In this document: one piece after another, positions 8,812 to 58,904 of the stretch | Position numbering within the stretch: the first letter of the stretch is position 1 | How the letters are laid out: every line of letters begins with the position of its first letter | From: Hydractinia symbiolongicarpus | Taxonomy: Eukaryota > Cnidaria > Hydrozoa > Anthoathecata > Hydractiniidae | Assembly: GCF_029227915.1 (NCBI RefSeq) | Contig: NC_079884.1 | Coordinates: forward strand, 16,556,001-16,620,000 | Length of the DNA stretch: 64,000 bases | Reading direction: 5' to 3' | Notes under the pieces: model-generated | What the model saw: the letters and a program-made list of their open reading frames with translations, nothing else | The model's database searches: none | What the model was told of the DNA's origin: nothing | Position numbers and translations under genes: made by a program

Positions 8812-9003
8812 TGTATTACAACAATAATAATAATATTACTGTGGAAAGTTTATCATTTCTTGAACATGATAGTTTAGTAGGCGACGTTTCGGGAGATCCT
8901 TCTCCCATCATCGGGCAAAGTAAAATGATGTTGCGCATGTATTTATATAATTGCAGAGGATCGAAATTCATAAAAATTAACCAATCAGAAACGAGCTGAT
9001 AAT
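8812..9003 (-). repeat. PLE terminal repeat, left copy
   Basis: Reverse complement of 11004-11190: shared words include gtttatcatttcttgaacat, tagtaggcgacgtttcggga and accaatcagaaacgagctga. It contains the hammerhead-like core on the minus strand (8880-8917). Confidence 0.85.
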
Positions 9004-9118
9004 TACAAAAGACAGATTCAATGATGATACACAAACGGGTATAGAAAAGAGCAAATGGATTGTCAATCTCTCCAACAGACAACTCACGACAGAAGAAACA
9101 AACCTTCTATCAAAAGGA

Positions 9119-10968
9119 ATGAATTTCTGCATGACACCAGCTTCAATTCCAAAGAAAGAAATAGTTGCGAAAGTGGAAGAGGCAATTAAAGATCTACCAA
9201 AAGAAGAGGCAGACACAGTAAGAGCTAAAGTAAGCCTCACGCTACAGAAAAGCAAAACACCAAAGGACAATTTGCAAAAATCTGAAAGACTGTCATTGAA
9301 GAATCTAAAGAAGGACAAAGATATCATAATCCTACCGGCAGACAAGGGGAGAACAACGGTTATCATGAATACACTTGACTACATCAACAAGTGCAACGAA
9401 CACATCAACAACGGGCCTTACAAACTTCTCAAGAAAGATCCCACAGAAGTCATCAAACGAGAAGCCAGGAACATCTTAATGGAGTTGAAGAGAAAAGAAT
9501 ACATCGACGATAAGCAGTATTACCGACTGAAACCTTGTGACGGACCACCACCGCGATTTTACGGACTACCCAAAATTCATAAACAGGGAAATCCAATTCG
9601 ACCAATAGTTTCCTGCACTGGAACACCGTTATACAACCTATCAAAATTTGTTGCTTCCATCCTCAGCAAATTCACAGCAAGTGACCACAGCAAAAACTCA
9701 AAAGAAATTTCGGAATACATCAGAGAAATAAAGATAGCAGACGACGAATGCATGGTATCATTTGATGTCACATCACTCTACACAAATGTTCCCATAAAAG
9801 ACACCTTAAACATCATTAAAGACATTATCGAAAACGATGCTGCATTCGGTGAAAAGACAAAGATTCCAGTACCGGATTTTCTACGTTTGGTCGAACTTGT
9901 TCTAACCAAAACATGGTATCTGTTTAATAAGAACTTCTACACTCAAACAGACGGAGTTGCCATGGGAGGCCCTGCATCATCAGTAGTCGCAGAAATATAC
10001 ATGCAAGCACACGAGACAACAGCATTAGTCACATCAGACAGACGTCCAAAGGTTTGGAAAAGATTTGTTGACGACGTATTCGCCATAATCAAAAGATCTC
10101 ATCTAGAAGAGTTCCATGAACACATCAACGGCCTACATCGACAAATCAAATTCACTGTTGAGCTTGAACACGATGGAAGTATCGCTTTCCTGGACACTTT
10201 GGTCAAACGCAAGAATGGTTCCATTTCAGTTTCAGTGTATCGTAAACCAACACACACTGACCAGTACCTTAACTTCGAATCAAACCATCAGAAATCTTGC
10301 AAAGAAAGTGTCATATCTTCATTACTGAATCGTGCCAACAGTGTAGTCAGTGACAAACAGGAGAGGAAAATAGAAATTCGACGTGTAAGAAATGCATTAA
10401 TCACAAATGGATACAGTCATAAAGTCATCACGCAAGTAGAAAATAAAATGAAGAGAAGATGCAACGGAGACAACAAGGAAACATCAGAGGAATTTATCGC
10501 ATCAGCATTCCTACCCTTCGTACCAGGTACCAGCGAGATCCTTCGTCGAGTTTTAAGGCAACACAAGATCAAATGCATTCTTACCTCTAAAGACACCCTA
10601 AGAAGCACTTTGTCTAAACCAAAAGACAAAATAAACCTGGAAGAGCAAAACAATGTTGTTTACGAAATCTCGTGTAAAGATTGTGATGCAGTGTATATAG
10701 GCGAAACAAAAAGAAAGTTTAAGCAACGAGTACAAGAACATATGCGCGCAGTGAGAAACGGAGATGTGAAGAAAAACGAAATTGCGGACCACAGCTGGAG
10801 CAGAGTCATCAGTTTAATTGGGATGAGAAGAAAATTATTGACAGAGAATCCAGAACAACGGCCAGGAAGATTAAAGAAACCATCAACAGTGTAGAACGTA
10901 ACAAACACATAAACAGCATCTCGTATCAACTTCCTGAGATTTGGTTACCAGCCCTACAGAAGAAGTAG
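9119..10968 (+). CDS. PLE reverse transcriptase with C-terminal GIY-YIG endonuclease, one frameshift
   Basis: RT blocks appear in order: LPADKGRTTVIM, PPRFYGLPKIHK, RPIVS, MVSFDVTSLYTNVPI (motif A), GVAMGGPASSVVAEIYM (motif B) and WKRFVDDVFAII (motif C, Asp pair), then FLDTLVKR and VYRKPTHTDQYLNF, typical of Penelope-type RTs. A GIY-YIG nuclease follows (VVYEISCKDC, AVYIGETKR, VQEHMRAV). The open frame ends at 10894, but the conserved C-terminus (HQFNWDEKKI ... LPEIWLPALQKK) continues in the next frame to 10968, so one base is missing near 10797. Upstream of the first ATG the frame is also PLE-like (KWIVNLSNRQLTTEE), so the true start is 5' of 9119 and is either lost or spliced. Otherwise the ORF is intact. 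Confidence 0.9.
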
Positions 10969-44900: not shown

Positions 44901-47900
44901 TTATTTGTAGACATTTGTTTCAGCCAATAATAACTCTTACTTCCTGCGATTAAACAAACAGACAAATAAAAAAAAACCGTGCTATCAGGTTATAAATCTA
45001 AAGTAAAATCTCTGTTTTTTATGTATATTTAAGTTTTTTTGGTATAAAAATAAACATAATAATTATCACGAATTGTCTGTAACAGCGATGTACGGAACGT
45101 TCTTTTCTAATGTTTATAGGATTTTGTTATCTATTTATATCCCAGCAACCACAGTGTGCATGATAAAATGAATGGCGGCAATGAGGAGGAGATAGTTACG
45201 TGTGTCTTATCAATTGTATTTTATATTTATTTTTGATAGTTTCAGTGGCCACCTGTTGCTCAAAGGTAGCGAAGATAAAAAAAGAAAATTATTATCTATA
45301 CTTTAATTTTAACATTTTTTTAATATTTTTAACAGGAATTAATAATTAAGTCCTGAGCACTGGGTTGAGAAATACGTGTCAATTAAACCTAAAAATGATA
45401 CCTGCTATATTGCTCTATTACCAGAAGCAAATCATTTCAATGTGCTCAATGTGATTGCAAAGATATAAATATAGATTTGAATTACATTCAACACAAAAGA
45501 AAAATGATATCCAGAATTGTGTTTCAGAGAGAGCTCGTAATATTAGCGCTGGCAAGCAAAATAAAATTTAAAGAAATTTCACTGTGTGAAAAAAATTAAA
45601 TCACGCAGTTGAAGTAAGATTACGTAGATATAGGATCGTGCATGCAGTTATATTAATGTACGCATTTTATCCTGTTAGTACTGTTTTCTTTATTGAATGT
45701 ATAAACTTTAAATTTTACAATAAATGACAGAAAATATAAAACTTATCACATAACCCGCACCACATTATAACCCGCACCAACAGTGGAAGTCGTAAAAATC
45801 AACTTATAACCCGTGGGTTATATACCGGAAAATATAGTAAATATTAAATATTTTATTGCAGTCTTTTTCAGGAGAGGCGTGCGATCGCAAGCGCACGCCT
45901 TGCGGTTCTTAACTAACGTGGAGGTGAACGCAGATGGAGCACGGATGAAGCAAGTCTGCAAAAATGCACTTACAGGCGGAATAGACATTTTATCATGAAT
46001 TTAATTGTAGATAATTTCTTCAGGTCCGAATTAAATGGATTTTTTGTTTATGCCTGTAAAAACGAAACCCACGTGCGGTGTAAATTTTTTTGAAGTTTTA
46101 AGCCACGTGGATAAAGATTCTTTTTAACTTGAAAACAAAACATATTTTTGCCTATTTGGTTGTGATGGCCTGAAAAGTGAACAATAAATATAAAAATGAC
46201 AGTATAGTCATGCATACTATTTCGGACATGTAGAAAAGGAAGTTAAGATTGAGAGAGTCGCTATACCAGTAGACGCTCGATCATCGTGTTTGGGGTTCAC
46301 GATTTAAAACGTCCCCCACTTTTCTACCGCAAAATGAATGCGCAACAAAATTAACCTCAGAGCCCGTATGCGTAACATTCTTTGCACGTGCGCTTTACAT
46401 CGCACGCGTTACTTGATTTACACGTGCGAATCATCACACACCTACTCAAATATTCCTGAAAAAGACTGTTCTTGCAAAAACCAAAAGTCTTATTTTCTTT
46501 TACGTGTATAACATAATATTATTTCTTTTAATTTTAAAAGCAAGTTGTCATCTCGATGTCGCATATGAAAGGGGATTTGGCTAAAGCCTTGGGTGGAATG
46601 TCCATCACCATTGACTTCAGTCTGACAACATCAACGCAGCAAAATATAACGCTGCACAACCACCTAAGCAGCAACAACAACAAATCAACCAGAAGCCGCA
46701 CTACAGGAGGAAATAAAAAAACACGACTTACTCCCCAGCAAGACCAGCAACCACAAAACGACTCTTTCATGGATGACTTTGATGTTGTAATTCCAGATTC
46801 AATTCATCAACCACCACCTCTGTTTATGTCAAACCATCATATGAATATGCCGCGTACATTGCACCTTATCCACAGCATGGACTGTTTTCTTCACCGCACT
46901 AACCATTCTCTCCACCGCATCAAAAATTTTCTATTCATCTACAGCACAGTTTTCATCATATTCCTTCCAACTCATATTTGACTGACAACGTCATCCTATA
47001 TGCACGCAATGTGGTGGCAAAAATTTTTGCAACAATACAAATGCAGAGTTTTACTGTAGAGGAGAGAAAAGGAAAAAACGTTTTTGGTATGAACAAAAGG
47101 ATGAAGAGTAAATTAGTTCCAAAAGAACCTTTAGACAAGGAAAAAGTAGAGTATATAAAGCAGATTGTTTTTCGGTACTTCAATGTTTCACAAACGAACC
47201 AAAAATCGACTTGGGAAGGCGCAGTTAATGCGATGAATGAGTACTTAAATAACAGTGACCCTATCTAATTTTATAACTCCTTTTTTAATATTTTTAAGTT
47301 TGTACCAACTGTTTTTCCAAAATTTATTTTTTAGAAAAATCGTGTTTTTGACTTAGTACAGTACCGCTATCAGGAAGCCTAACATCGTGATCGTGTATCA
47401 TGCGCGACACCCACGATCCACGATCCTATCGTGTCTGTCATGATTATAAAAATATTAGATATTAGATCGCGAAACTATCGTGGTGATCATGTTCATCGCG
47501 ATGGATCATGAAAACCCTGATAGTTTCGCGATGGAAATCACGATTCATTTATGCAAATTTCTGTTTTTCTTTGATCTACAAAAGCTCTCCTAAATTATTA
47601 GAGTTGCGAAATACGAATCATTCAAGAAGGCTAACGCAAATCTTTTTTAGGAAAGCCTATTTAATTGATTTGTTTTTACTTATGGCTGCACTAGTTATTA
47701 TAGATATGATTAAAGGAATACGACGAATTTATATCTTGCGCTCAGTAGCTTTTTAGTACCTTTAAAATTCAAGCTTTTTAACTTCAAGCTTTTTATAGTC
47801 GTTTTTTGAAAAATAAAACTTGAAAAAATAACTAAAACAAAATAATTAAAACATAAAAAAAATCATTAACAAAACAGAATATTATTTTAAGTAATGATTT

Positions 47901-50900
47901 TCATGATCCATCGCTAGCGTTGTTATCAGCCACCGTTCAACTTCGTAACTTTATTTACATTAAATATTTTTAGTTGCACAAGTAGTAACAAAGTTTAATA
48001 ACTTTAATACTAAAACACTCAAGATTTTTCGGACAAGTGTTTTAATTCCCGGCCGTGAACGTGAACATTGATAGAACATACCCTTCAAGTGTTCCCCACG
48101 CTGAAATTAATAATTTCTGTGGGGTGTACAGGAGTAAAGGAATTGTGTTTTTACTTCTCCTTCTTAAATTTTTTTTTTAAGTTCTAAGATTTTAAAGATT
48201 TAAGATCGCACGCGTGGTAACTTTGATTTTTCGTCTGCGTAAAATTGTAATTTCCCGCTTAAATTTTTTAAATTAAAGTATTTAATAATTTTTGTTTTGA
48301 AAAAATATAGTTTCTACAAGTGAATGTTTTTTATAACTGGTTTCACGCTGCACACTTGCCGTCCTGCTCCAGTTGAACATGATACATTTACGTCATTATT
48401 TGATAACACATTATGTTTAAAAGAATGCCTTCACTATTTGATATGCCACAAATACGTAGTCATTATCAACTTTTGATATCTTAAATGTTAAAAATGGCGC
48501 CTGGACTAAATTTATACTTGAGACAACGTATTGTTAATCTCGCTAATTTAGGAATTAAATTTACTAAAATTTCATCAATATTATTGAATGAAGATAAAGC
48601 TTTGGTATCACGACAAGCAATATCTAACGTATATGCGAAATTTAAAAACACAGGTTCGATTGCGCCAAAATCAAAACCTGGTCGACGCAGGATTTTGGAA
48701 ACAAGACATTATGATTTTATAGACAGTTGCTACGAAAAAAACGATGAACTCACGTCAATAGGTAAATTTTTTAATTAAAAATATTTTTTTATTATTTTTT
48801 ACAAACTTAATAAGCAAACAAAAATTTCACAGCAAAGCCGAAAAACTTCTCTGTCTTAAGAAAAAGCCCTGAGTACGAACTTGTCTAAAGGAATGTTTGT
48901 ATTATATTTTTATCAGAAGAATGAAAAAAAAAATCAATTTAGTAACAATATTTTTATTCGTTAAATGAAAAGTTATATGGTTTAGTTCAATTCTCTCCCA
49001 ATCTTGCTTTTAAAACATATCTAAAATTAAGAAATTAGCATGTCATTCATTATTACGTTTTTTTTTATATCTTTAGAGCTTCAAAAACTTATAAAAGAAA
49101 AATTTGATTTGGAAGTTTCGTCCAGTACAATAAAGAAAACGAGGAAAAAATTAGGATGGACGTTAAGTGGTCCAAAATATTGCCAATTAATAAGAGAGGC
49201 AAACCAGGTCGCTAGACTAGAGTTTTGTTTGGAGTTACAACGAAACAACGAAAAGTTTGACGACATCATATTCACCGACGAATCTACGATTATGATGGAT
49301 AAGCATGGAAAAATATGTTTTCGGAAAAAAGACCGCTTGCCACGCCTCAAACCTACTCCAAAACATCCGTATAAAGTACATGTGTGGGCTGGTATTTCAA
49401 AGCGCGGTCCCACGAAAATAGCAATATTTTCAGGGATCATGAAAAAAGAATTTTATGTAGACATATTGAAAGATACTTTGCTTCCATTTATTAACGAGGT
49501 TTACCCTGACGGACATAGATTTCAACAAGACAACGATCCTAAGCATAAAAGTAAGTATCCTTAAAACGAGAATGTACGTTTTTATAAGAACATGTTTTAA
49601 TTTTTAACACAACCTTTTTTTTATAATCTATCCCCTTTTTTAACTTAGGTAAATTAACCACAACATTTATTCGTTTTATTTTTCTTCACAAGCAAGCCAC
49701 GTTGTTGTAACAATAGCATAAAAAATAACACCTGCTCCTCAAACAATTTACTAAAACAAAAGCTGTTAACTCTTGAGGTTTCATAGTGTTTCCTGCGGCT
49801 ATTAAATCTAACAAAAGGGTGAAAAAAATAGATGGTTTACCCCGTACCTGTTCTCAATTATAGAACCGCTGTCAAAGCTGCTCAAGAGAAAAAACCCTGG
49901 GAAGGAGGTTTTTTCGTAGCGAAATGAATAACTACTTTTGGTGGCAATTTGAATAAAATACTTTTTGCACCTGTAACAAAGCTCTCATGTTTGACTTCGT
50001 CATGTGACAAATAATAGCTAAAATACAGAACGCATCAGTTATAATTCGCAGTTGTTTAAAGTTAAGATTCAATCTCGACTTTCATCGAAAGAGTAAAGAT
50101 GTCCGCACGAAAATTGTTGAAAGTTTACAAAAATGGCTTATTTTATTTTAATTCGGATAAAACATTAATGGTCTTACCAACAAAATACATAAAAAATGAG
50201 ACCTACCAAGTTGGCATGACGGTGGATATTCAGCTGCCAAGACAAATAGAGCAAGCAGAAATCATTGATTTAAGTGGTAATTTATGACTCCAAATTTTAT
50301 ACTATAATTGTGTAAAGCACATAGATTAAAGTTATTTTTATATTTATATTATATATTTTTACGTAGATGACAAGACTAATTTAGAAATAAAGCTTTTGGA
50401 ATATTATAATGACCCTGAGAATAGACAAAAATTTGAAAGCAGTGAAGAGGAGGATGAAAGAGATGACGAGGCAGAAAAGGCATTGGAGATGGTTTTAAAG
50501 TGTGGAAGTAAGAGAAAGAATAAAAATGTAAAAAGTAGCGTTAAAAAAGAGAAGAAGAGGAAAGAAAAGAGAGAACAAGAAAAGAAAAAGAAAGAAAAAG
50601 AAACGAAAGAAAAAGAAAAGAAAGAAAAAGAAAAGAAAGAAAAAGAAAAGAAAGAACAAGAACAAGAAAAGAAAAAGAAAGAAAAAGAAACGCCAACCCA
50701 AAAGAAAACCTTCGTAAAAAAAGAACTGGTTAGTAAAATAAACCTTGTATTTAGGGCTCTAAAAATCTGATATAAAAGAGAAATGTTAAATTTTTAAAAA
50801 GTTATCAGAAAATTACTGACCTAGAAATTTAACATTTTTGCACAGCTAGTAACAATAATAATTTTTTAGGCTACGATGATAACATTTGGAGATACTGGAG

Positions 50901-53900
50901 CAGGCGCGAATAAAAACGACTGGAATGAAAATAATAATGAATATAAAGAAAATAACGGATGCGTCGAAGTGACACAAAACAGATTGCTAGAAAATATAGC
51001 TGGTATTCGTAATGATGTTGTAGAAACTGAAAAGAACAGGGAGAATGAAACAGAATTAATGGATTGTTTACAACCTTTACAACGTACCGGTGATGAAAGT
51101 AGTGGTAAAACAACTGAAATTTTCGAAATACCAGATTTTGATAACGAATCCATCGATTTTGGGGTAAATTAAAAAAATTTTTCTCTATATTTTACTTGTT
51201 CTACAAATTGGTCATGTGTGTAAATAAACTATATTCATATTATAGGTCAAAGAGAGCGGTGTTCAATTTGCAACACAGGTCGATACAGCGGCAACCCAGC
51301 AATACCACAGTGCCTGCTTTTCAAGCCTCCTGCAACAAAACACTCTGCTTGCTCAACAGATTGCTGAAATAAAAGCAAACAATATTTACTTGCAGGGTAT
51401 CCTTCACCAAGTCGTCGCCAATCAAGAACGAATCATTGGGAAATTGGCAATTCTTGATCCGAATAAGGTTGTCTACGCTTCTCCACCAAAAAAATTTACT
51501 ACGAAGCTGACTCCAAAAAATATTTTTAGCACGCCAGCACCATTCGAGCCATTGTCGACATCTGTAGAACCGACTAGCGCAACGGAAGATTTTTTTAACA
51601 TCGAAAATAATTTGCCCGTTTCCGCTATGCAGATGGGAGGAAGTGAGGAAGTCACACCAAACGAAGGAAGAAACGATCTGTCCTTTGCCGAAATACAAAA
51701 AATTTCGTATAGGTCACAATCTATAAAGAATTTTGCGAAGAACCTGGCAGTTGCTATGTTCTCGGAAGAGGAGAGAATAGACAGCAACTGCAGTGGCGCA
51801 AAAGGAAAAAAACCACTCAACCCAGCCAAGTTGGGAAAAATAAGAGAGTACGTGTTTCAAATTAACACTATGAGTTCTAGGGAGGAAGAAGAAACATGGA
51901 GAAAATGCAAAGAGGCAATAAACGAACTCGGAAGAAGAACAAGACGATCAAGATAGTTTTTTCTTTTCTTCACTTTGTAAAGTTTTTGTAAATTTTTATC
52001 ATAAAAATAGTTAGCTACTTTAACATAACATTTACAACTTTTCTTTTCTTGACACAAACCAACTTTTTTCCAAAGAGAGTTTTCAAATTAATTTGATTTT
52101 TATAAAACCATCCTGAGGCATGACTAAGAATAAATGTGCTAAAATAAATAAAATAAATTCTTTCTGCAGATGCAGGAAAGCCAGTCTTAAAACGAAACCC
52201 AGTAAAAAATAAATTTTGTGAAACGTATTAAGGATGAGTGCGAAGTTGAAACAACGTTAAACGCGATGATGTGTTGCCAGATTTGCTATATGTTTTTTGC
52301 ATTAATTCTAGATATTTTTGATTTCTCTTTCCCCTTTTAAAAAGATGTTTTAAACCTTATTCAACATGATTTTTTTGTGGTATTACATCACGAGAACATT
52401 CGTCCGAAAGCTGTATTAAGGTACAGGACACCTAACCTCTCCCATGTTCTGGTTATATTTAACTTGCATGGGTGCACACTCTTCTCGCAGTATTCTCTGT
52501 GACGATGAAGGTCGGACTGACTTGTGGCATGGTTCCAAATGGTCTTCCGTCTTTCGTTCGAGTCTCAGTGTAATGCACCAGCCGAGCATAAGAGTGTCAG
52601 CATGAAGGAAAGGGGCCGACTTTAATGTTCTCTATACCTTACTTTCACAATTCTTCCTAATAACACCGACCGCTTTTTGATCGCAGGCTTCATAAGTTTT
52701 GTGTTTTTGGTGCCTCTTATTTAGCACATTCATTTAAAATATAAGAAAAATATATCGTAGATAAAATAAAATCACGACCGACCGACCGACCGGGTCAGTG
52801 CTGAAACCCTCGCCTCGGTGACAGCAAACAAATTTTTAATTCCAGCCTAACAAGAAATCACGGTTGGTTAAAAATCACACATATAGAAAAAACTAGTCAA
52901 GAATAAAACCTATCGCGGACGTATATTTTGATTGAGATTTTTAAGATGTGAAGAGGTCGTTAAACTTCAGCAAATGAAACTGGCTAAAAAGAGAATACGG
53001 TGATCTTTTTTTAATTGCTTTTGATTTAAATTGTTATTAAAGCAATAAAAATTATATAGCATTTCAGTGAAACAATTGCATCGTGACGAACACGATTTTA
53101 TTTTTTATATGATCGTTAAACTCATGATGCATCGTGACACGATAGATCGTGTCTCCCACGATAGCATTATTTCACCTTTGAGCACAAAGATCGTGGATCG
53201 TGGGTGTCGCGCATGATACACGATACACGATGTTAGGCTTCCTGATAGCGGTACTGTATCTTTTTATTCTTACCAGAACAAAATGTTCCCACAACGAGTG
53301 TTTTAATCTTTCAAGAACATCCAAAGTTTTATTTTTTGTCTTTGGTATTGAAATTTAATTTGTTTTCGAAATCTTATTGTGAATGGAAATTTCTTAAACA
53401 TAGGGTTTTGCTGTTTGCGTTGTTAAACGTTGCTTTTTATAAAAAGAACTTTTAAAAGTTTTGCATGTTAAAAAATATGTTTGAAGTTTTTAAAAGTAGC
53501 AGCATTAATTTTTTTTTAAAATATTTAGACCATTGGATTTGTTGTTTTTTAAAAGAGCTTGTGTTTTTAAAATATATGTAAATGCGTTTGTGATTGAATA
53601 AACACAAGATTTCCGTGCTTAGCTCTCGTTGAGGTCGGACATATCTAAAACGCTCCGGTCTTGGCGCGCTAAGTCGAAGAAAGAAAAAAGAAGACTAAAG
53701 CTTGAAGAGCTCCTGCTTTGACAGCTAAGTCCTTTTTGATTTATTATATATTGTACTGCCTTCTTTACTTCATTTATATCTTTTCATTCCTTAATTTGTT
53801 GTTTTGTAAGTTTTTAAATTATTGTTTTTGTTAATAAATTGTTTTTATCCCAGTCAGTTTTTTATCCATCTATCATCTAATATGGTAGCTTTGCTGTGTT

Positions 53901-56900
53901 GTGGGTTCCTGCTGCTCCTTCTGTGTAACATCGTAAGGAAATGGGCTTGCCTCAGATCCTTCAAACATAGTTTTGGAAGAGCACATAACCGTAGAATGAT
54001 CTCTCTACGACTTAAAAATAACTTTACTCAGGTAGGAAACCCCACATTTACGCTAAAACTGATTTTTGTGTTCGTTGTATTTTTGAGCAATACAAAACCT
54101 TCGTTCAAAAGTAGTTCACCCAACAACAACGAAATGAGTCGACTAGATACGAGTTTCTTTTCTATCTCTTCACTTGATGCCTGCAATAGAGTTTCTGAAA
54201 GCCAGCTCACTCTCCAATTAAAATTAATGGCTTTATCAAAACTTAAGCCAAGCAGGCACAAGTATTTCTATTTTTTAATCCTCTTGTCAGGGGACATCTG
54301 CCTCAACCCAGGTCCTGTTAAGTATCCCTGTTCTTCATGCTTAAAACCTGTGGCTCCCTGTCTTTCTCGTAATTTGCCCTTTGCTAATGAGGAGTCATTT
54401 GGTGACGAAATTCCGGACAGAAAACTTTGATTTTGAGGCAATCAGCAATGGGAAGGGCTTAAAAATGGCCCATCTCAACATTAATGGTCTGTCATCCAAA
54501 CTAGACTATGTTAAACTTCTGCTACATCAAACAAAACTTGATGTATTCTACATCTGTGAAACCAAAATTGATGAGACCATCACTGACAATGACGTTAAAA
54601 TTGATGGCTATGTTTGTTATAGGAATGATCGGAATAGACGAGGTGGGGGTTTCTAATTTTTGTTAATGAAAACTTGGATAGCCCCACCTTTTGAAACACC
54701 TTTACTTCGAAAATGTTGAATCACTATGGGTGAAAGTGTGCCTGAAAAAAACTAAACCTATTTACGTGTGTGGGGTTTACAGGCCACCTGGAGGTAGTGA
54801 TTTGCAGAGTACCGAAAACCTGTGTACTCATTTTAAACAGTGTTTTAACAAGCTCCCAAAAGAAAAAGAAGTTTTTATCTTGGGAGATTTTAACTGTAAC
54901 ATGATTTCAAAATATGCTCTTTCCTCCAAAATAAAGGAATTATGCTCCAGTCTTTTCCTAAAACAACATATTACGGAGCCAACTCGTGTTACTGAAAATA
55001 GTAGCACTCTTATAGACTTGATACTTTCTAACAGTTCTTGTATTTCTAAAACTGGTGTCATGGATTTAGGCATCAGTGATCACAATTTAGTTTATGTGAT
55101 CAGAAAATTCAAAAGGCCAAAATTTAAACCTAAAACATGCAAGCTTCGTAGCTACAAGAACTTCAGTGAAGAGGCTTTTCTGAAGGACCTCAGGAATTTA
55201 GACTGGTCATATTTTAATAATTATGATGACCTTGATGAAGCATGTGAGAAACTGAATAAAAATGTTAAAACAGTGGCTGATAAACATGCCCCTTTCAAAA
55301 CACATAGATTTTCTGGCCGTGTTGAGGCATGGGTCACTGATGAATTAATAATAGCCATCAAAGAAAGAGACTTCTTAAAACGGAAAGCATCAAAAACAAA
55401 ATCCATCATAGACTGGGAAGCTTTCAAACAAAAAAGGAACCAGGTAATAGGTCTCAAAAATCGACTTAAAAACGAGTACTATAATGACGTTTTGCAGCAC
55501 TTTCAAAAACGGCCAAAACAACTTTGGAAAACCCTAAAAAAACTGGTTCCTGATAAGTCAGGCAATACTACCTCGATAAAACGAGTAGTCCAAAACGATG
55601 GTACAGAAACTTCTCACCCAAAAGAAATTTCCAACACATTCAATTCATTTTTTGTCAGTGTTGGTGCCAAACTAGCCTCTAAATTTTCTTCTGACACTAC
55701 TAATGTTAATCCACCTGTTAGCGGACACGATTTTCGGTGGGCTGGTATTGAGACCAAAAGTGTCAAAAAAATAATTAGTTCACTAAAACTTAATAAAGCT
55801 ACAGGCTTGGACGGAATTGGTTCACGACTGCTAAAAGCAGGTTCGTCAGTTTTAAGTATTTATTTATCAAGTCTTTTCAACAAATCTTTATTTACTGGTT
55901 ATGTACCTAAATGTTGGAAGACTAAAAGGGTCTCGCCTATTTTTAAAAGTGGCAATAAAACAGATCCTACTAATTATCGGCCTATCTCCATTTTGCCAAT
56001 TCTTATGAAAATTTTTGAAAAGTTAGTGCATGATCAAATGTCTCATTTTATTTCTGAGCACAACTTCCTGAATGACAGACAGTCCGGATTTCGAAAACTC
56101 TTTTCCACAGAAACTGCAGTAGTCGATGTCTCTGATTTTATTCTTACTGAGCTCGACCAACATAACTTTGTTTGTGCTGTGCTCATTGACCTTAAAAAAG
56201 CTTTTGACACTGTTGATCATAAAATTTTGTTAAAAAACTATGGTGTTTTGGCATCAGAGATGCTGCCTTTGACTGGTTCAAGTCCTACTTAACGGGCCGA
56301 ATGCAGCTGACTCTTGTAAACGACACAGGATAAGATCTGCTTCATGAAGATGCTTTTGGGGTGCCGCAGGGATCTGTGTTGGGGCCCCTGCTCTTTCTTT
56401 TGTATATTGATGACTTAAAATCTGTCATCAATTCAAACTACCACCATCTATATGCAGATGATACAATAATTATTTCGTCTCATAAAAACTTGGATACCCT
56501 TGTCTCCCAGGTCGAGTTAGAACTTTCGCAAGTCGACCTCTGGCTGAATAATAACAAAATGACTATTAATACGGACAAAACTGAAACAATCTTTTTCGGC
56601 AACCACAGCCAGTTAAAAAAAGTTGAGAACAAAACTATCAACTATATGGGTATTCCTTTGAAGAGGAGCGAAAAAGTTAAATATCTTGGGGTAACATTTG
56701 ATCAAAAAATGCAATGGGAAAAGCACATTAATGACATAAATAGAAAAATACTAATTAAATATTCTAAAATTAGAACCATTGCATCCTGTTTAACACCTCA
56801 CACAAAAAACCTTTTAATTAATGCACTTGTCATGCCATATTTCAACTACTGCTCCTTGGCATGGGCTTGTGCCAAAGGTAGATTGGGAAAACTAGAAAGA

Positions 56901-58904
56901 TTAAAATGTGTCCGTACCTTTCTTGGGAAAGAGAGGGAGCATTCAATGAATAATTTACTCATCAAAAACGATGCCATATTAGTTTTCAAAGCCATGAATC
57001 ACATTGCTCCTGATTACATGCGCTCAAAATTCCTTTTGACAAAAAACTGTCATAATCATCAAACAAGAGGAGCTTCAAAAAACAGGTTCACACTTCCCTT
57101 GGTCAACACAGAATTTGGCAAAAGAGCCTTCCCATTTAGAGCTGAAAAAGTGTGGAATAATCTTCCAGACCAATTGACCTGTGATGGAAGTCTGCTTTCG
57201 TTTAAGACTTCCATCTCTAATGTATTTGGCAAATTCTAATGGAGATCACTTTTTAACTTTTTAATTTTTGTTTTTTATTCTTTTTCTTTTCAATTTTCAC
57301 AGATTATAAATGTTACTATGTTTGATTGAGCTGAGGCAGTCTAAGGTTTATCATTTTTTGTTTCTTTTTTGTTCTAGTGGCCCCCAGTGGAAACAATCCA
57401 CTAACTATAGGTTTTTGTGATTTTCTGGGCTAGCCACTTTAAATATTTATTATTATATATGATTATTATTATTATTATTATTATGGATATTACATCTTAT
57501 TTAGGCGAGGAAGTTTCCGCATAAAAACACATGTTCCTTTCATCAATTTTATGTTATTACAGTATAAATTTGGTCACACATCCCTGCTTCTCAGCACTAA
57601 AAAAAGATGCAAATTTCAACTGAAGTGTGTTTGAATTTTGGAATATTTTGCTTTCAACAGTTAAGCGTTAAGCAATTTGTCACTTAAGTGGGAAGTAATT
57701 GACGCGTAATTAAGAGGTGTAGTTTATTTATACTGTAATAACATATTTAAAAGTTTTCCCAGACTGTATATAGATACAAGGGTGCCAACTCGCTGTAAGC
57801 GCCATATATATGAGGGTGGCTGCTGGCGTTTTCAAAGTTTTTTTCTGTAACTGTACGGAAAAGCTTGGTCCCGCCTGAATTGCGCCCGGAATGCAACAGG
57901 TGCAAACTCATTGTTCTCATTTAAATTTTGTCAAAAGAAGGAATGTGCTATTTTGTCGTTGTAATCTCAGTTTATTATTTGTGAGATTTTATTACAGCTG
58001 TTTATAGAATAAGTGATAATAAAATACAGTTTTTTTAGCTCTTCCACTGCCACTGCTCGACATTAAAAGAATAAATTATACTTGGTAAAAAATGTTTAAA
58101 AAAAATGTTGTTTTGGTTGATTCAGGTTTCTCCCGGGCGAAATTTTGCGGGTTTTTTAAAGCGCCGGAAGTTGTCCGACAGCCCCATGGATTTTGCGGCG
58201 ATTCTGGCGAGTCGGCACCCTCGTATAGAGATAGTCATTCTTCTGGCAAAAAAATCATGTGTCTATGTTTTCAACCAATAGGATTATTGCATGTTTGGGG
58301 TAAACAAAGACTGTGTTCAAATGTTCCTAAAACATTATTCTTTGTAAGTCATATGATAAATACACCTTTGCGATAATTCGGGAAAACTAACACTCCATCG
58401 TAGCTTAATTTGCGATTGAAGGAGGTAAACATCACACTTTTATAAGAGTTAATTAAGGAGAAAACATGTTTTTTCATGATAACTTTTCTTGCCGCGTTTT
58501 GTTTTTAAAGAAAAGTACACATAAGTTGTATCTTTTATTATTAACGTTCCTAAAAATTTGAAAGAGATTGATACGAAGGAAGTTAAAAAACTGGAGAAAA
58601 CACGCTTTCTTTCAACAAACTCTTATAAGAACACGTTTTTTACCTAGGAACGCATGTACAATTAAATTATCGTAAAAGTGCTATTCAGGTGAGAGTATTG
58701 TTTGCACCCAGAGATGTGATGTCATCATTGCCACAAGAATAGCTAGCTAGCTACCCCAATCAGGGTGTAATAGCATGATGGAGATCCTTCCCATGTACTA
58801 ACCTAATAAAGTCGTCATTTTGACGCACAAAGAAAATCCATTTACCTTGTACAATTTTCAAAATTAAATCCGGATTGCTGTATGTCTACAAGTGCGGCAG
58901 CCAT
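20845..58904 (-). CDS. PSMB7: Proteasome subunit beta type-7 (beta-2), exons 1-6, 3' end outside window
   Basis: Six exons join in phase on the minus strand: 58904-58846, 25645-25516, 23697-23639, 23558-23465, 23228-23182 and 20960-20845. Exon 1 encodes [20 protein letters not shown]. Exon 2 holds the propeptide end and the catalytic N-terminal Thr of the mature subunit ([20 protein letters not shown]). Exon 3 gives [17 protein letters not shown], exon 4 [15 protein letters not shown], exon 5 [15 protein letters not shown] and exon 6 [19 protein letters not shown] with [12 protein letters not shown]. These are hallmark stretches of the trypsin-like beta-2 subunit of the 20S core. The Lys and Asp active-site neighbours are kept. 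The C-terminal third is absent from positions 1-20844, so intron 6 is over 20 kb or the gene is truncated. Intron 1 is about 33 kb of transposons. Confidence 0.93.
22282..22560 (-). mobile_element. RTE LINE, 5'-truncated 3' end
   Basis: The minus strand reads the end of the RTE ORF ([20 protein letters not shown], then [20 protein letters not shown]) with a 3' tail of ATG/GATGAT repeats at 22282-22305. It is highly similar to the larger RTE at 33076-33330 and clearly of the same family. It lies in PSMB7 intron 5. Confidence 0.85.
22589..22786 (-). pseudogene. Unidentified coding-like fragment, 65 codons
   Basis: An open, charged, helical frame ([20 protein letters not shown] ... [19 protein letters not shown]) ending at a stop, directly beside the RTE fragment. 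Composition looks protein-like, not like AT-rich noise. No family is recognised and no splice context is visible. It may be part of an older transposon. Confidence 0.25.
23182..23228 (-). CDS. PSMB7: PSMB7 exon 5
   Basis: Acceptor CTTTAG, donor GTAAGA, only 47 bp. It encodes [15 protein letters not shown] and two bases of the next Arg codon. Confidence 0.93.
23465..23558 (-). CDS. PSMB7: PSMB7 exon 4
   Basis: Acceptor TTATAG, donor GTATAC, 94 bp. It encodes [15 protein letters not shown] and [11 protein letters not shown], then ETQKK, and ends in phase 0. Confidence 0.95.
23639..23697 (-). CDS. PSMB7: PSMB7 exon 3
   Basis: Acceptor TTATAG, donor GTAAGT, 59 bp. It encodes [19 protein letters not shown] plus two bases of Tyr; the first T of exon 4 completes that codon. 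Confidence 0.95.
23698..25515. other. PSMB7 intron 2, no element recognised
   Basis: AT-rich intron. Two chance ORF stretches resembling exon 3 were examined and rejected. Confidence 0.5.
25516..25645 (-). CDS. PSMB7: PSMB7 exon 2
   Basis: Acceptor TCTAG, donor GTATGT, 130 bp. It encodes the processing site and catalytic Thr in KTGTTIAG, then [11 protein letters not shown]. Confidence 0.95.
26990..28970 (+). pseudogene. Decayed member of a cnidarian multi-copy gene family (CIICQ ... EEADT type)
   Basis: Scattered in-order homology in several frames: [13 protein letters not shown] (27045), again [17 protein letters not shown] (27455), VYYHLTCW (27610), [20 protein letters not shown] (28175), [20 protein letters not shown] (28250), a tract corresponding to 'DTPDGL' (28368), and [20 protein letters not shown] (28785). 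From memory this order belongs to large uncharacterised proteins present in many copies in Hydra, corals and molluscs, probably transposon-derived. The doubled CIICQ motif suggests overlapping remnants of two copies. Many stops make it a pseudogene. It lies in PSMB7 intron 1. Confidence 0.5.
28971..32200. other. Intron sequence without recognisable genes
   Basis: AT-rich DNA with a short open stretch near 29135-29250 ([20 protein letters not shown]) that may be a further scrap of the upstream pseudogene family. A short CCAAACCAAAC-type repeat lies near 30750. Nothing else is supported. Confidence 0.4.
32221..33006 (+). pseudogene. Decayed ORF with N-terminal signal/anchor helix
   Basis: A 54-codon frame starts [20 protein letters not shown], a strong signal or membrane helix, followed by an acidic tail ([18 protein letters not shown]). 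After a frameshift it appears to continue with NELVADIK and [11 protein letters not shown], and near 32900-33006 with [20 protein letters not shown] followed by [11 protein letters not shown] before a stop. I infer a broken single gene or element ORF. No family is recognised. It abuts the 3' end of the RTE element on the other strand. Confidence 0.3.
33009..35074 (-). pseudogene. RTE reverse transcriptase and C-terminal region
   Basis: Ordered blocks: linker [98 protein letters not shown] (motif A); [18 protein letters not shown] (motif B, Gln-Gly pair kept); [12 protein letters not shown] (motif C, catalytic Asp pair). Then [20 protein letters not shown] and the C-terminal [20 protein letters not shown]. 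Each block is in a different frame or split by stops. Confidence 0.85.
35274..36210 (-). pseudogene. RTE endonuclease domain
   Basis: Reads [20 protein letters not shown] with [11 protein letters not shown], then after a frameshift [27 protein letters not shown]-type strand ([20 protein letters not shown]), [15 protein letters not shown] and [10 protein letters not shown]. These are the ordered motifs of the APE-like endonuclease of RTE elements (N, Y-A-P, GDxN, final H replaced in context SQHKL). The catalytic GDFN-type motif is GDCN. Broken near 35900. Confidence 0.8.
36460..36690. repeat. Outer inverted repeat, left arm
   Basis: Reverse complement of about 53400-53590: shared words include gcaaaactgttaaaagttct, agcaacgttta, ctaatgctgctactttt and caacaaatccagtggtctaa. 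The arms lie 17 kb apart and enclose the THAP fragment, the palindromic mosaic and the TIR transposon. Confidence 0.65.
37002..37200 (+). pseudogene. THAP zinc-finger fragment
   Basis: [20 protein letters not shown] followed by [11 protein letters not shown] and, one frame on, [20 protein letters not shown] and [14 protein letters not shown]. This gives the C-x4-C, FHR-P, W and C-x2-H pattern of the THAP DNA-binding domain. A one-base shift near 37096 breaks the frame. THAP domains are typical of P-element-like and related transposases, and the position just inside the left outer inverted repeat fits a transposase N-terminus. No catalytic domain follows. Confidence 0.55.
37091..37613 (+). repeat. 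Recent 263-bp tandem duplication within the THAP region
   Basis: 37091-37353 and 37354-37613 are almost identical; I see one substitution (gcaggtg versus gctggtg). The second half of the THAP finger is included in both copies. Confidence 0.85.
38440..38738 (+). pseudogene. Unidentified coding-like ORF inside the outer inverted repeat
   Basis: Open frame from an ATG near 38486: [20 protein letters not shown], then [40 protein letters not shown]. It is helical and charged, unlike the surrounding noise. It could be a further exon of the THAP-bearing element. The family is not recognised. Confidence 0.3.
39240..39720. repeat. Palindromic mosaic: inverted partner of 45070-45500
   Basis: Reverse-complement similarity to 45070-45500 across several blocks (tgcttctggtaatagagca; tttgcaatcacattg; catcgttgttacagacaat; ccattactgccacccatttt). 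Confidence 0.65.
40270..40400. repeat. Degenerate TACTCG-rich simple repeat
   Basis: Many spaced copies of TACTCG/TACTCGT (gtactcgagggtacggagta ... cgtatactcgtgtatag). It overlaps a chance ORF. Confidence 0.5.
40561..40857. repeat. Long inverted repeat, left arm
   Basis: Pairs with 46181-46468 in inverted orientation (gcgatgattcgcac; ttgcgcattcattatgcggt; gaccccaaacacgatgat-type block; gaaatagtattcatgactat). A shorter direct copy of part of it (gggacgttttaa ... accccaaacacga) lies at 44767-44850. Confidence 0.75.
41615..42160. repeat. Inner inverted-repeat blocks, left
   Basis: 41615-41725 (aatgtctatttcgcctgtaa; gcagacttgcttcatccgtg) pairs in inverted orientation with 45910-46025. 42060-42150, with its self-complementary GTGTGCGATTAATCACACGC, pairs loosely with 45860-45905. 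Confidence 0.6.
42890..43530. repeat. Minisatellite, about five units of roughly 125 bp
   Basis: Each unit holds tcaaaattttgatgtcacca, tcatgttcagcatac, gttaactgtgccaaattttg and attttggcctaaaatgacat. Units start near 42907, 43031, 43153, 43295 and 43423 and differ by substitutions and small indels. Confidence 0.85.
43740..44350. repeat. Satellite-like array with 220-bp higher-order unit
   Basis: Basic unit of about 50-60 bp (gatagaaaagcttcgttaga plus tcgtgttttaaaaattt and aagaacaaagaac). Longer blocks repeat almost exactly at a spacing of 220 bp: gcgataggaatgttttttta occurs near 43920 and 44140. A stray basic unit lies at 42536. Confidence 0.8.
44509..45839. mobile_element. 1.3-kb non-autonomous TIR element with ATAACCCGCAC subterminal repeats
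   Basis: The left end TACCGTAATTTCTGGTATAT and the right end (reverse complement TACTATATTTTCCGGTATAT) form imperfect TIRs. Inside each end the word TATAACCCGCAC recurs: several times between 44522 and 44670 and three times between 45750 and 45815. Clustered subterminal repeats of this type are typical of hAT-like elements. No clear target-site duplication is seen and no transposase is encoded. Confidence 0.6.
45070..45500. repeat. Palindromic mosaic: inverted partner of 39240-39720
   Basis: See the partner. It lies inside the 44509-45839 element, so the left partner is probably a remnant of a second copy in the opposite orientation. Confidence 0.65.
46181..46468. repeat. Long inverted repeat, right arm
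   Basis: Reverse complement of 40561-40857 over nearly the full length. Together they form a 5.9-kb palindrome-flanked block. Confidence 0.75.
46981..47268 (+). pseudogene. BEN-domain-like C-terminal fragment
   Basis: Open frame ending in [20 protein letters not shown], then [20 protein letters not shown] and [14 protein letters not shown]. The pattern '[FL]T.EE..GKN..G...... LD..K...I+..VF..F .......W...V.A+NE' parallels the BEN domain of the intact gene at 50099-51956. The frame opens only after a stop at 46980 and upstream Gln/Pro/His-rich sequence is broken. It lies about 90 bp left of the TIR transposon boundary, outside the element. A second frame in the same DNA (near 46985-47105) is Cys-rich and may be coincidental. 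Confidence 0.45.
47359..47425 (+). repeat. Left TIR of the BEN-carrying transposon
   Basis: CAGTACCGCTATCAGGAAGC followed by GATCGTGTATCATGCGCGAC and CCACGATCCACGATC. It matches the reverse complement of 53189-53256 with one small indel. Confidence 0.9.
48485..49550 (+). pseudogene. Tc1/mariner-type transposase, two exons, third catalytic exon not found
   Basis: Exon 1 (48485-48761) encodes a helix-turn-helix DNA-binding part ([51 protein letters not shown]). Exon 2 (49077-49550; acceptor CTTTAG, donor GTAAGT) joins in phase and holds [20 protein letters not shown], the first catalytic Asp in IIFTDEST, the [20 protein letters not shown] strand, [20 protein letters not shown] and the second catalytic Asp in QDNDPKHKS. 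The third acidic residue and the usual 'SPDLNPIENLW' region should follow in the next exon, but I find nothing like it up to 50098. The open frame is otherwise undamaged. Presumed inactive alone. An intron-containing Tc1-type transposase is unusual. Confidence 0.8.
50099..51956 (+). CDS. BEN-domain protein, four exons, 514 codons, carried by the TIR transposon
   Basis: Exons 50099-50276, 50367-50728, 50870-51163 and 51246-51956, with GT..AG introns, join in frame from ATG ([20 protein letters not shown]) to stop. Domains in order: an N-terminal folded part (about residues 1-60); an acidic then extremely Lys/Glu-rich helix (about 75-175, [13 protein letters not shown] type); an acidic linker; a Gln-rich coiled coil ([20 protein letters not shown]); a Ser/Thr/Pro-rich linker; and a C-terminal BEN domain (about 430-514) with [51 protein letters not shown] and [18 protein letters not shown] domains bind DNA and act in chromatin and transcription. 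It sits beside the transposase on the same strand, inside the TIRs. It may help or regulate transposition (inference). Confidence 0.8.
52505..52600 (+). other. Possible tRNA-derived (SINE-like) internal promoter region
   Basis: TGGCATGGTTCCAAATGG (52525-52542) resembles a polymerase III A box and GTTCGAGTCTC (52556-52566) a B box, at the usual spacing of about 30 bp. The surrounding 200 bp is more GC-rich than its setting. No intact cloverleaf is seen. Confidence 0.3.
53189..53256 (-). repeat. Right TIR of the BEN-carrying transposon
   Basis: Inverted copy of 47359-47425. The ATCGTG-rich words continue inward for another 100 bp on both sides (subterminal repeats). Confidence 0.9.
53400..53590. 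repeat. Outer inverted repeat, right arm
   Basis: Reverse complement of 36460-36690 (gtagcagcattaattttt; gaccattggatttgttgttt). LINE-B begins at or just after its right edge. Confidence 0.65.
53822..54430 (+). CDS. LINE-B 5' ORF: hydrophobic N-terminus, 2A-like peptide, zinc-finger start
   Basis: 202 codons. Membrane-like helices near the N-terminus ([28 protein letters not shown]), then [20 protein letters not shown], matching the 2A-type peptide pattern (G-D-x-x-x-N-P-G-P) known near the N-terminus of several APE-type LINEs. [14 protein letters not shown] then looks like the start of the CxxC finger that often follows. A frameshift near 54370-54430 leads into the endonuclease frame, so the listed stop is an artefact of the break. 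The true start is uncertain; M at 53881 (MVALLCCG) is as likely as 53822. Confidence 0.6.
   Translation: MFLLINCFYPSQFFIHLSSNMVALLCCGFLLLLLCNIVRKWACLRSFKHSFGRAHNRRMISLRLKNNFTQVGNPTFTLKLIFVFVVFLSNTKPSFKSSSPNNNEMSRLDTSFFSISSLDACNRVSESQLTLQLKLMALSKLKPSRHKYFYFLILLSGDICLNPGPVKYPCSSCLKPVAPCLSRNLPFANEESFGDEIPDRKL
54421..57239 (+). pseudogene. LINE-B endonuclease and reverse transcriptase, broken by two frameshifts
   Basis: Part 1 (to 54656): [40 protein letters not shown] (endonuclease). A frameshift follows, then 54691-56292: [43 protein letters not shown] (end of endonuclease), linker, [77 protein letters not shown] (motif A). After a second shift, 56361-57239: [20 protein letters not shown] (motif B), LYADDTIII (motif C), [17 protein letters not shown], and the C-terminal [10 protein letters not shown]. 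All catalytic motifs are intact, so only the two shifts separate it from an open pol. Confidence 0.88.
57486..57775. other. Short intron stretch, no gene
   Basis: AT-rich DNA between LINE-B and the MITE. Nothing is recognised. Confidence 0.4.
57776..58226. mobile_element. Small MITE with imperfect TIRs (AGGGTGCC...)
   Basis: The left end AGGGTGCCAACTCGCTGTAA and the right end (reverse complement AGGGTGCCGACTCGCCAGAA) form TIRs of about 35 bp around 450 bp. No ORF with support. The target duplication is not clear. Confidence 0.5.
58846..58904 (-). CDS. PSMB7: PSMB7 exon 1 (coding part)
   Basis: ATG at 58904, 59 coding bases, donor GTAAAT after ACAAG. The phase leaves two bases (AG), completed by the first A of exon 2 to give Arg. 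[10 protein letters not shown] matches the conserved N-terminal propeptide (F-x-F-[DE]-N-C) of beta-2 subunits. Confidence 0.9.

What the first reader, a model, noticed from the sequence alone, without database searches (positions are those of the whole stretch)
47359..53256. TA-flanked TIR transposon carrying an intact, spliced BEN-domain gene next to a Tc1/mariner-type transposase
Seen: near-identical 67-bp inverted ends starting CAGTACCG, a TA on each side, a two-exon HTH-DDE transposase fragment, and a four-exon 514-codon BEN gene with no disabling change. Known: classical Tc1/mariner elements are 1-2.5 kb, usually intronless, and carry one gene. A 5.9-kb element with introns and a chromatin-type accessory protein would be a new architecture. 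BEN proteins bind DNA, so the product could target the TIRs or silence or insulate the element (inference).
Basis: partly seen in the sequence, partly recalled or inferred. Interest (0 to 1): 0.88.

Follow-up and report, generated by a model that had tools for sequence, protein, structure and literature searches.

The report
Jumping gene carrying a BEN partner
In the hydrozoan Hydractinia, a lineage of cut-and-paste jumping genes carries, besides its own transposase, a second gene for a BEN-type DNA-binding protein, and the ends of the element studied hold dense arrays of one short CpG-containing motif that this protein may bind.

Summary
Window 47359-53256 is a TA-flanked element with 67/68-bp inverted ends, a transposase and an intact four-exon BEN gene (514 aa). 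The genome matches Hydractinia symbiolongicarpus. Sister copies show what is missing: transposase exon 3, with the catalytic glutamate, so this copy is transposase-defective. The family is Tc1-type (DD34E) with introns. Chance capture is excluded: the BEN gene lies between the same ends in another full-length copy, and in a diverged lineage (transposase 65%, BEN domain 47% identical) it follows the transposase with conserved intron positions. A third group (transposase 47-48% identical in its best copies, apparently intronless) has a BEN gene head-to-head with the transposase at 13 of 22 loci. The two ends together carry 17 ATCGTG/CACGAT hexamers within 200 bp of the termini, none in the interior; the diverged lineage's left end has an array too. 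I infer that the BEN protein (long helix plus a BEND3-like domain) binds these arrays as a transposition or silencing cofactor, working like TnpA of En/Spm; binding is untested. Multi-gene Tc1/mariner elements were known; a BEN partner I did not find in the papers searched.

The parts
47357..47358 (.). TA target site, left
   Evidence: sequence; TA on both sides in 12 of 14 copies tabulated (exceptions: right end of L021; L023, whose right end was not found)
47359..47425 (+). left terminal inverted repeat, 67 bp
47384..47544 (.). left array of ATCGTG/CACGAT (7 hexamers at element positions 26, 32, 54, 61, 70, 119, 181)
48494..48761 (+). transposase exon 1 (paired-type HTH)
   Evidence: Pfam PAX 24.7 bits (cut-off 22) for the ORF 48485-48778
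49077..49550 (+). transposase exon 2 (second HTH, DDE domain with the first two catalytic Asp)
   Evidence: Pfam matches for the ORF of this exon alone are below the cut-offs; recurs in other copies
49652..49656 (.). junction at which transposase exon 3 is missing; L009 has about 340 bp more here, L023 about 320 bp, L017 (whose upstream part is deleted) about 280 bp
50099..50276 (+). BEN gene exon 1 (conserved N-terminal stretch, no Pfam match)
   Evidence: 35 of 59 residues identical in the C13 lineage
50367..50728 (+). BEN gene exon 2 (acidic, then Lys/Glu-rich)
50870..51163 (+). BEN gene exon 3
51246..51956 (+). BEN gene exon 4: long predicted helix, then C-terminal BEN domain
53080..53231 (.). 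right array of ATCGTG/CACGAT (10 hexamers within 177 bp of the end)
53189..53256 (-). right terminal inverted repeat, 68 bp
53257..53258 (.). TA target site, right

Best explanation
The window holds a transposase-defective copy of a two-gene Tc1-type (DD34E) DNA transposon. Shown: another full-length family copy has a three-exon Tc1-like transposase gene and the BEN gene between the same TA-flanked ends, and the two kinds of gene lie side by side in diverged lineages of this genome. Inferred: the BEN protein is an element-encoded accessory factor. It oligomerises through its long helix and binds the arrays of CpG-containing ATCGTG motifs at both ends. There it helps assemble or regulate the transposase complex, or occupies the ends and changes their chromatin or methylation state, as TnpA does for En/Spm. 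Defective copies such as this one may still supply BEN protein in trans. My odds: two-gene element about 0.95; BEN protein binds the end arrays about 0.5; positive cofactor rather than repressor about 0.35.
For: Copies with the same ends. Exon 3 and DD34E spacing; Sleeping Beauty alignment E 5.6e-18 spanning all three catalytic positions. Pairing: 11 of 31 BEN loci have a transposase within 6 kb, all 11 on the same strand and upstream, against about 0.0018 expected per locus; 4 of the 11 are the window's family and two others are near-identical duplicates. D group: 13 of 22 BEN loci paired, all 13 head-to-head. Conserved introns. An annotated protein joins C13-lineage transposase to BEN exon 3 (P0006). 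Constraint: dN/dS 0.44 [0.29-0.65], window against L023, 340 codons. Arrays: 17 hexamers near the two ends, 0 in the interior; 9 lie outside the repeats, against 0.10 expected; the C13 lineage's left end has 11 CACGA/TCGTG in its first 185 bp (positions). The BEN domain's best solved relative is BEND3 (E 1.4e-6), a binder of unmethylated CpG; BANP senses methylation only when oligomeric (PMC11472053, passages). Long helix at residues 2-70 of exon 4, block pLDDT 65-91.
Against: No binding, expression or transposition data. 20 of 31 BEN loci and 9 of 22 D-type loci have no transposase match within 6 kb. At least three transposase loci close to the C13 lineage (C5:27187205, C1:31040737, C10:22709875) show no BEN match; internal deletion could explain that, untested. 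L023, the diverged copy with both genes, has no exact hexamer at its left end, and L021, L022 and L025 keep only 5-8. dN/dS against the four other copies measured (L009, L017, L027, L015) has an interval that includes 1. The ends of the D group and of the C1 elements were not seen, nor the right end of the C13 element. The transposase's own HTH domains could bind the arrays.
Confidence: 0.6

Rival explanations
1. The BEN protein is a self-regulator: it binds the ends to silence, insulate or mark the element (limiting copy number or host damage) rather than to help transposition.
For: BEND3 and BANP act at unmethylated CpG, BEND3 as a repressor (PMC11472053, passages); this copy keeps an open BEN gene after losing transposase exon 3; short end-bearing deletion copies are common among the fetched ones.
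Against: A pure repressor gives the element little reason to keep it through long divergence, yet the pair is found in several lineages.
Confidence: 0.3
2. The hexamer arrays are bound by the transposase's paired-type domain, and the BEN protein acts elsewhere (target choice, chromatin, escape from host silencing).
For: Tc1-type transposases bind their own ends through paired-like domains (recalled); PAX and HTH matches.
Against: 17 hexamers in the window copy, and 11-17 in ten of 14 tabulated copies, are more than the two sites per end of Sleeping Beauty (recalled); a BEND3-like CpG-binding domain in the partner fits them better.
Confidence: 0.25
3. Chance capture of a host BEN gene by one element copy, or a host BEN gene that merely lies between two ends.
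For: Other BEN-like loci exist in the genome without a transposase nearby; a distant BEN-like ORF lies 90 bp outside the left end.
Against: BEN sequence in 6 of 20 fetched stretches around other copies; same gene pair and intron places in a diverged lineage, and further pairs.
Confidence: 0.03

Closest known systems
Tc1/mariner superfamily, Tc1-like DD34E (Sleeping Beauty; cnidarian transposases labelled Tcb2)
   Same: TA flanks, terminal inverted repeats, paired-type HTH, DDE domain with 34 residues between the second Asp and the Glu; the C13-lineage transposase is 56% identical to an Exaiptasia protein labelled Tcb2 transposase
   Different: 5.9-6.1 kb, three-exon transposase, second gene for a BEN protein, hexamer arrays at the ends
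TBE elements of Oxytricha (Tc1/mariner with three ORFs; PMC4724952, passages)
   Same: Tc1/mariner transposase plus additional element-borne genes
   Different: extra genes are a 22-kD ORF and a zinc-finger/kinase ORF, not BEN; ciliate germline
Fanzor1 and methyltransferase mariners (PMC3627910, passages)
   Same: mariner transposase with captured extra genes, TA flanks
   Different: different genes, several of them in virus genomes; no BEN in the passages read
En/Spm (CACTA) TnpA and subterminal repeats (PMC2613891, passages)
   Same: element encodes a second DNA-binding protein; short motifs repeated near both ends; deletion derivatives mobilised in trans (only inferred here)
   Different: unrelated proteins, CACTA ends, different target duplication
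BEND3 / BANP BEN-domain proteins
   Same: BEN domain (best solved match BEND3); BANP joins a coiled coil to one BEN domain (PMC11472053, passages)
   Different: host chromatin proteins; not described as transposon genes in the passages read

Membership tests
Tc1/mariner superfamily (DD34E, Tc1-like) | TA target-site duplication | tested here: met
   TA both sides in 12 of 14 tabulated copies
Tc1/mariner superfamily (DD34E, Tc1-like) | terminal inverted repeats | tested here: met
   67/68 bp
Tc1/mariner superfamily (DD34E, Tc1-like) | paired-type HTH plus DDE transposase | tested here: met
   PAX 25.0 bits (cut-off 22) and DDE_3 47.6 bits (cut-off 28.6) for the C13-lineage protein with X at its stop; the window's exons 1-2 reach the cut-off for PAX only
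Tc1/mariner superfamily (DD34E, Tc1-like) | complete DD34E triad in the family | tested here: met
   34 residues between second Asp and Glu in the C13-lineage protein; aligned to Sleeping Beauty
Tc1/mariner superfamily (DD34E, Tc1-like) | complete DD34E triad in the window copy | tested here: not met
   exon 3 absent: a defective member
BEN-domain proteins (PF10523) | score above the curated Pfam cut-off | tested here: met
   34.4 bits (window protein) and 30.5 bits (C13-lineage exon 4), cut-off 23.2
BEN-domain proteins (PF10523) | sequence-specific DNA binding | not testable with these tools
   needs EMSA or DAP-seq
En/Spm (CACTA) | CACTA ends | tested here: not met
   ends CAGTA with TA flanks, Tc1-type transposase; works-like only
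Autonomous two-gene element | one copy with both genes intact | tested here: inconclusive
   none among the seven BEN regions compared has both; at D-group loci, open frames of up to 359 codons (transposase) and up to 344 (BEN) without stops are reported, sequences not seen

The most novel reading that the evidence does not exclude
A clade of Tc1-type transposons has an obligate BEN-protein partner that reads the methylation state of CpG arrays at its ends: the oligomeric BEN protein binds only unmethylated arrays, so excision is licensed or marked by chromatin state. Gene order was remodelled (tandem with introns, or head-to-head) while the partnership was kept.
Probability: 0.25. Interest if true: 0.85.

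Novelty: new variant of a known kind. Interest (0 to 1): 0.7.

Why it matters
Animal Tc1-type transposons are usually thought of as minimal one-protein machines. A lineage that keeps a chromatin-type DNA-binding partner, with motif arrays at its ends, would be an animal counterpart of the TnpA/TnpD division of labour in plants and a tractable test of how a transposon uses or evades CpG methylation. It also offers a possible mobile source of BEN genes in animal genomes. Hydractinia is kept in laboratories, so the tests are practical.

Tried and rejected
BEN relatives in public proteins: two searches gave none (E 1e-3, 8000 candidates scored, where the Lys/Glu-rich stretch may have crowded out others, residues 279-514, 542 candidates, E 10). 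Viral contigs: none. A structure of exon 4 without an alignment was weak (mean pLDDT 62.9, pTM 0.32), so only the long helix is used; the fold search did not complete. Literature: searches naming 'BEN domain' together with transposon terms listed no paper whose title or abstract start describes a BEN gene in a Tc1/mariner element; the lists were capped (for example 15 of 144, 12 of 1,017, 12 of 643). Three listed papers with one mention of 'BEN domain' each (PMC9579193, PMC5704228, PMC11075544) were not opened. Most subscription papers and Repbase reports are not in that library. dN/dS for the transposase was not obtained: the script stopped with an error after printing five BEN rows (codons 100-180, Lys/Glu-rich, were dropped beforehand) and was not rerun. 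Chance capture and a host gene between two ends were rejected (see rivals). The right end of the C13 element and the ends of the C1 and D-group elements were not reached.
Full report
What is there. The element at 47359-53256 has ends of 67 and 68 bp that differ by one inserted base, with TA outside each. Inside lie, on the + strand, two transposase exons and a four-exon BEN gene, with GT/AG borders and phases that fit; the BEN reading frame is 514 aa without a stop. Pfam gives a paired-box match for exon 1 and BEN for the second gene, both above their cut-offs.

Which genome. The window is C10:16556001-16620000 of a 480.9-Mb assembly. Two annotated proteins hit lie on contigs of 42,572,105 and 28,449,500 bases and are named as Hydractinia symbiolongicarpus; these are the lengths of C1 and C13. 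I therefore take the host to be that species.

Other copies. A 101-base end query gave 40 matches, 40 of 143 candidates being scored. I fetched 20 stretches. L009 is a 6051-bp copy with both ends and both genes in the same order. L023 (73-82% identical in pieces of 100 bp or more) has the left end, transposase and BEN gene; its right end was not found. L017 has both ends and the BEN gene but a large deletion in the transposase; L015 and L016 have both ends and BEN fragments; L027 has a right end and repeated BEN copies. The remaining 14 show no BEN match and are internally deleted or broken copies or single ends. TA flanks stand on both sides in 12 of 14 tabulated copies. Left parts of L011, L013 and L016 are 99.1-99.6% identical to the window copy, so the family moved recently (inference). 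Of the seven BEN regions aligned, counting the window's, only the window's reads through; the others carry stops, shifts or deletions by that alignment.

What the window copy lacks. L009 has about 340 bp more at window 49652-49656. In L009 it encodes the transposase C-terminus with ESPDLNTIEMLW, itself with a stop and a frame change; L017 and L023 have corresponding stretches. In the C13 lineage three exons are seen with GT/AG borders, one stop in exon 2, and 34 residues between the second catalytic Asp and the Glu. The only solved match up to E 0.1 is Sleeping Beauty, E 5.6e-18, aligned over all three catalytic positions. So the family is Tc1-like DD34E, and the window copy has lost the last exon.

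The BEN gene belongs to the element. A genome search with the BEN protein gave 84 matches (84 of 138 candidates scored), and one with transposase exons 1-2 gave 112 (141 of 141 scored). They merge into 31 BEN loci and 74 transposase loci. 11 of 31 BEN loci have a transposase within 6 kb; in all 11 it is upstream on the same strand; chance is about 0.0018 per locus. Four of the 11 are the window's family, and C1:28455331 and C1:30757905 are near-identical duplicates, so the number of independent cases is smaller. In the C13 lineage the transposase (159 of 245 residues of exons 1-2 identical) precedes a BEN gene (44 of 93 over the BEN domain, 35 of 59 over the N-terminal exon). No array of end motifs and no inverted copy of the left end was found between them, but the right end was not reached. 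An annotated protein, P0006, joins C13-lineage transposase to BEN exon 3, matching adjoining hits at C13:24327401-24327940. BEN introns 1 and 3 and both transposase introns are at the same places in window and C13 lineages. The C13 BEN copy reads through only if exon 2 ends at an earlier donor; that is a reading by eye, and one search found stops with the donors it tried.

A third group. With the C13 BEN protein as query (92 of 98 candidates scored, 71 matches), 22 rows show a more distant BEN ORF, 35-38% identical over the BEN domain, 20 of the 22 without stops, with open frames up to 344 codons (321 at seven loci). At 13 of the 22 a transposase lies within 6 kb, and all 13 are head-to-head (31 of the 112 transposase rows were typed in, and I saw no other row within 6 kb of the remaining nine; one, C10:16998216, has a transposase 6.6 kb away on the same strand). 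In the five best copies the transposase is 47-48% identical with open frames of 353-359 codons, and the match runs unbroken across the place of intron 1; intron 2 lies beyond the query. I did not see these sequences or their ends.

The ends. A pattern taken from the first two families, TACAGTA-N16-TAACATCGTG with up to 2 mismatches, occurs 406 + 392 times, against 33 + 59 for the reversed control; the 84 matches whose letters were printed fall, by eye, into three main sequence types. The window element has 17 ATCGTG/CACGAT hexamers within 200 bp of its two ends and none in the interior; 9 of the 17 lie outside the inverted repeats, against 0.10 expected from the rest of the window. Of the 14 tabulated copies, ten have 11-17 such hexamers near the ends, L021, L022 and L025 have 8, 7 and 5, and L023 has none at its left end; one interior hexamer occurs in L017 and three in L023. 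The C13 lineage has 11 CACGA/TCGTG in the first 185 bp of its left end and three elsewhere in the rest of the 8.6 kb examined inward of it (positions).

How it may work. The BEN domain's nearest solved relative is BEND3 (E 1.4e-6). According to passages of PMC11472053, BEND3 and BANP prefer unmethylated CpG, and BANP tells methylated from unmethylated tandem CpG only when oligomerised, through its coiled coil or its C-terminal domain. The element's protein joins a long predicted helix to one BEN domain, and its ends hold tandem CpG motifs. From this I infer that it binds the ends as an oligomer. Passages of PMC2613891 describe TnpA of En/Spm doing such a job: binding subterminal repeats, required for transposition and also a suppressor. 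Whether BEN helps or represses cannot be told from sequence. Purifying selection on BEN is supported by dN/dS 0.44 [0.29-0.65] against L023 (340 codons), although L023 is itself broken; for L009, L017, L027 and L015 the interval includes 1.

What is new. Multi-gene Tc1/mariner elements exist (PMC4724952 and PMC3627910, passages), so extra genes as such are not new. A BEN partner, found in several lineages and in two gene orders, with motif arrays at the ends, is what I did not find in the listings.

Against this reading. 20 of 31 BEN loci and 9 of 22 D-type loci have no transposase match within 6 kb; at least three transposase loci close to the C13 lineage show no BEN match, one of them between two ends 3.2 kb apart (C1:31039085-31042256); no intact two-gene copy was read in full; nothing about binding, expression or movement was measured.

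Noticed in passing
window 46903-47268 (+): A second, distant BEN-like ORF ends 90 bp before the element (Pfam BEN 19.6 bits, below the cut-off of 23.2; 26.5% identity to the element's BEN). It may be a host gene or a relic; the insertion next to it may be coincidence.
   Followed up: partly
G000:C2:27300140-27313291 (L027, L038-L043, L048-L050): Tandem array, spacing about 2.4 kb in part, of a unit with transposase exon 2 and BEN gene pieces, ending at a family-A end.
   Followed up: partly
G000:C1:28.45 and 30.76 Mb; C1:11.855 and 15.44 Mb: Pairs of BEN loci with identical or nearly identical scores and spacings, suggesting segmental duplications on C1 or an assembly duplication.
   Followed up: no
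L054:2577-3620: About 450 bp downstream of the C13-lineage BEN gene starts a coding stretch that by eye resembles a THAP/P-element-type transposase (label recalled, not scanned; one search failed). It may be an insertion between the BEN gene and the element's right end.
   Followed up: no
L045:3176-3670: Downstream of the C1-lineage BEN gene lies an ORF with zinc-finger-like cysteine/histidine spacing; by eye it may belong to another mobile element.
   Followed up: no
window 8981-10894 (+) and 54682-57239 (+): Long reverse-transcriptase-like ORFs; by eye a Penelope-like element with a GIY-YIG-like end and a LINE (labels recalled, not scanned).
   Followed up: no
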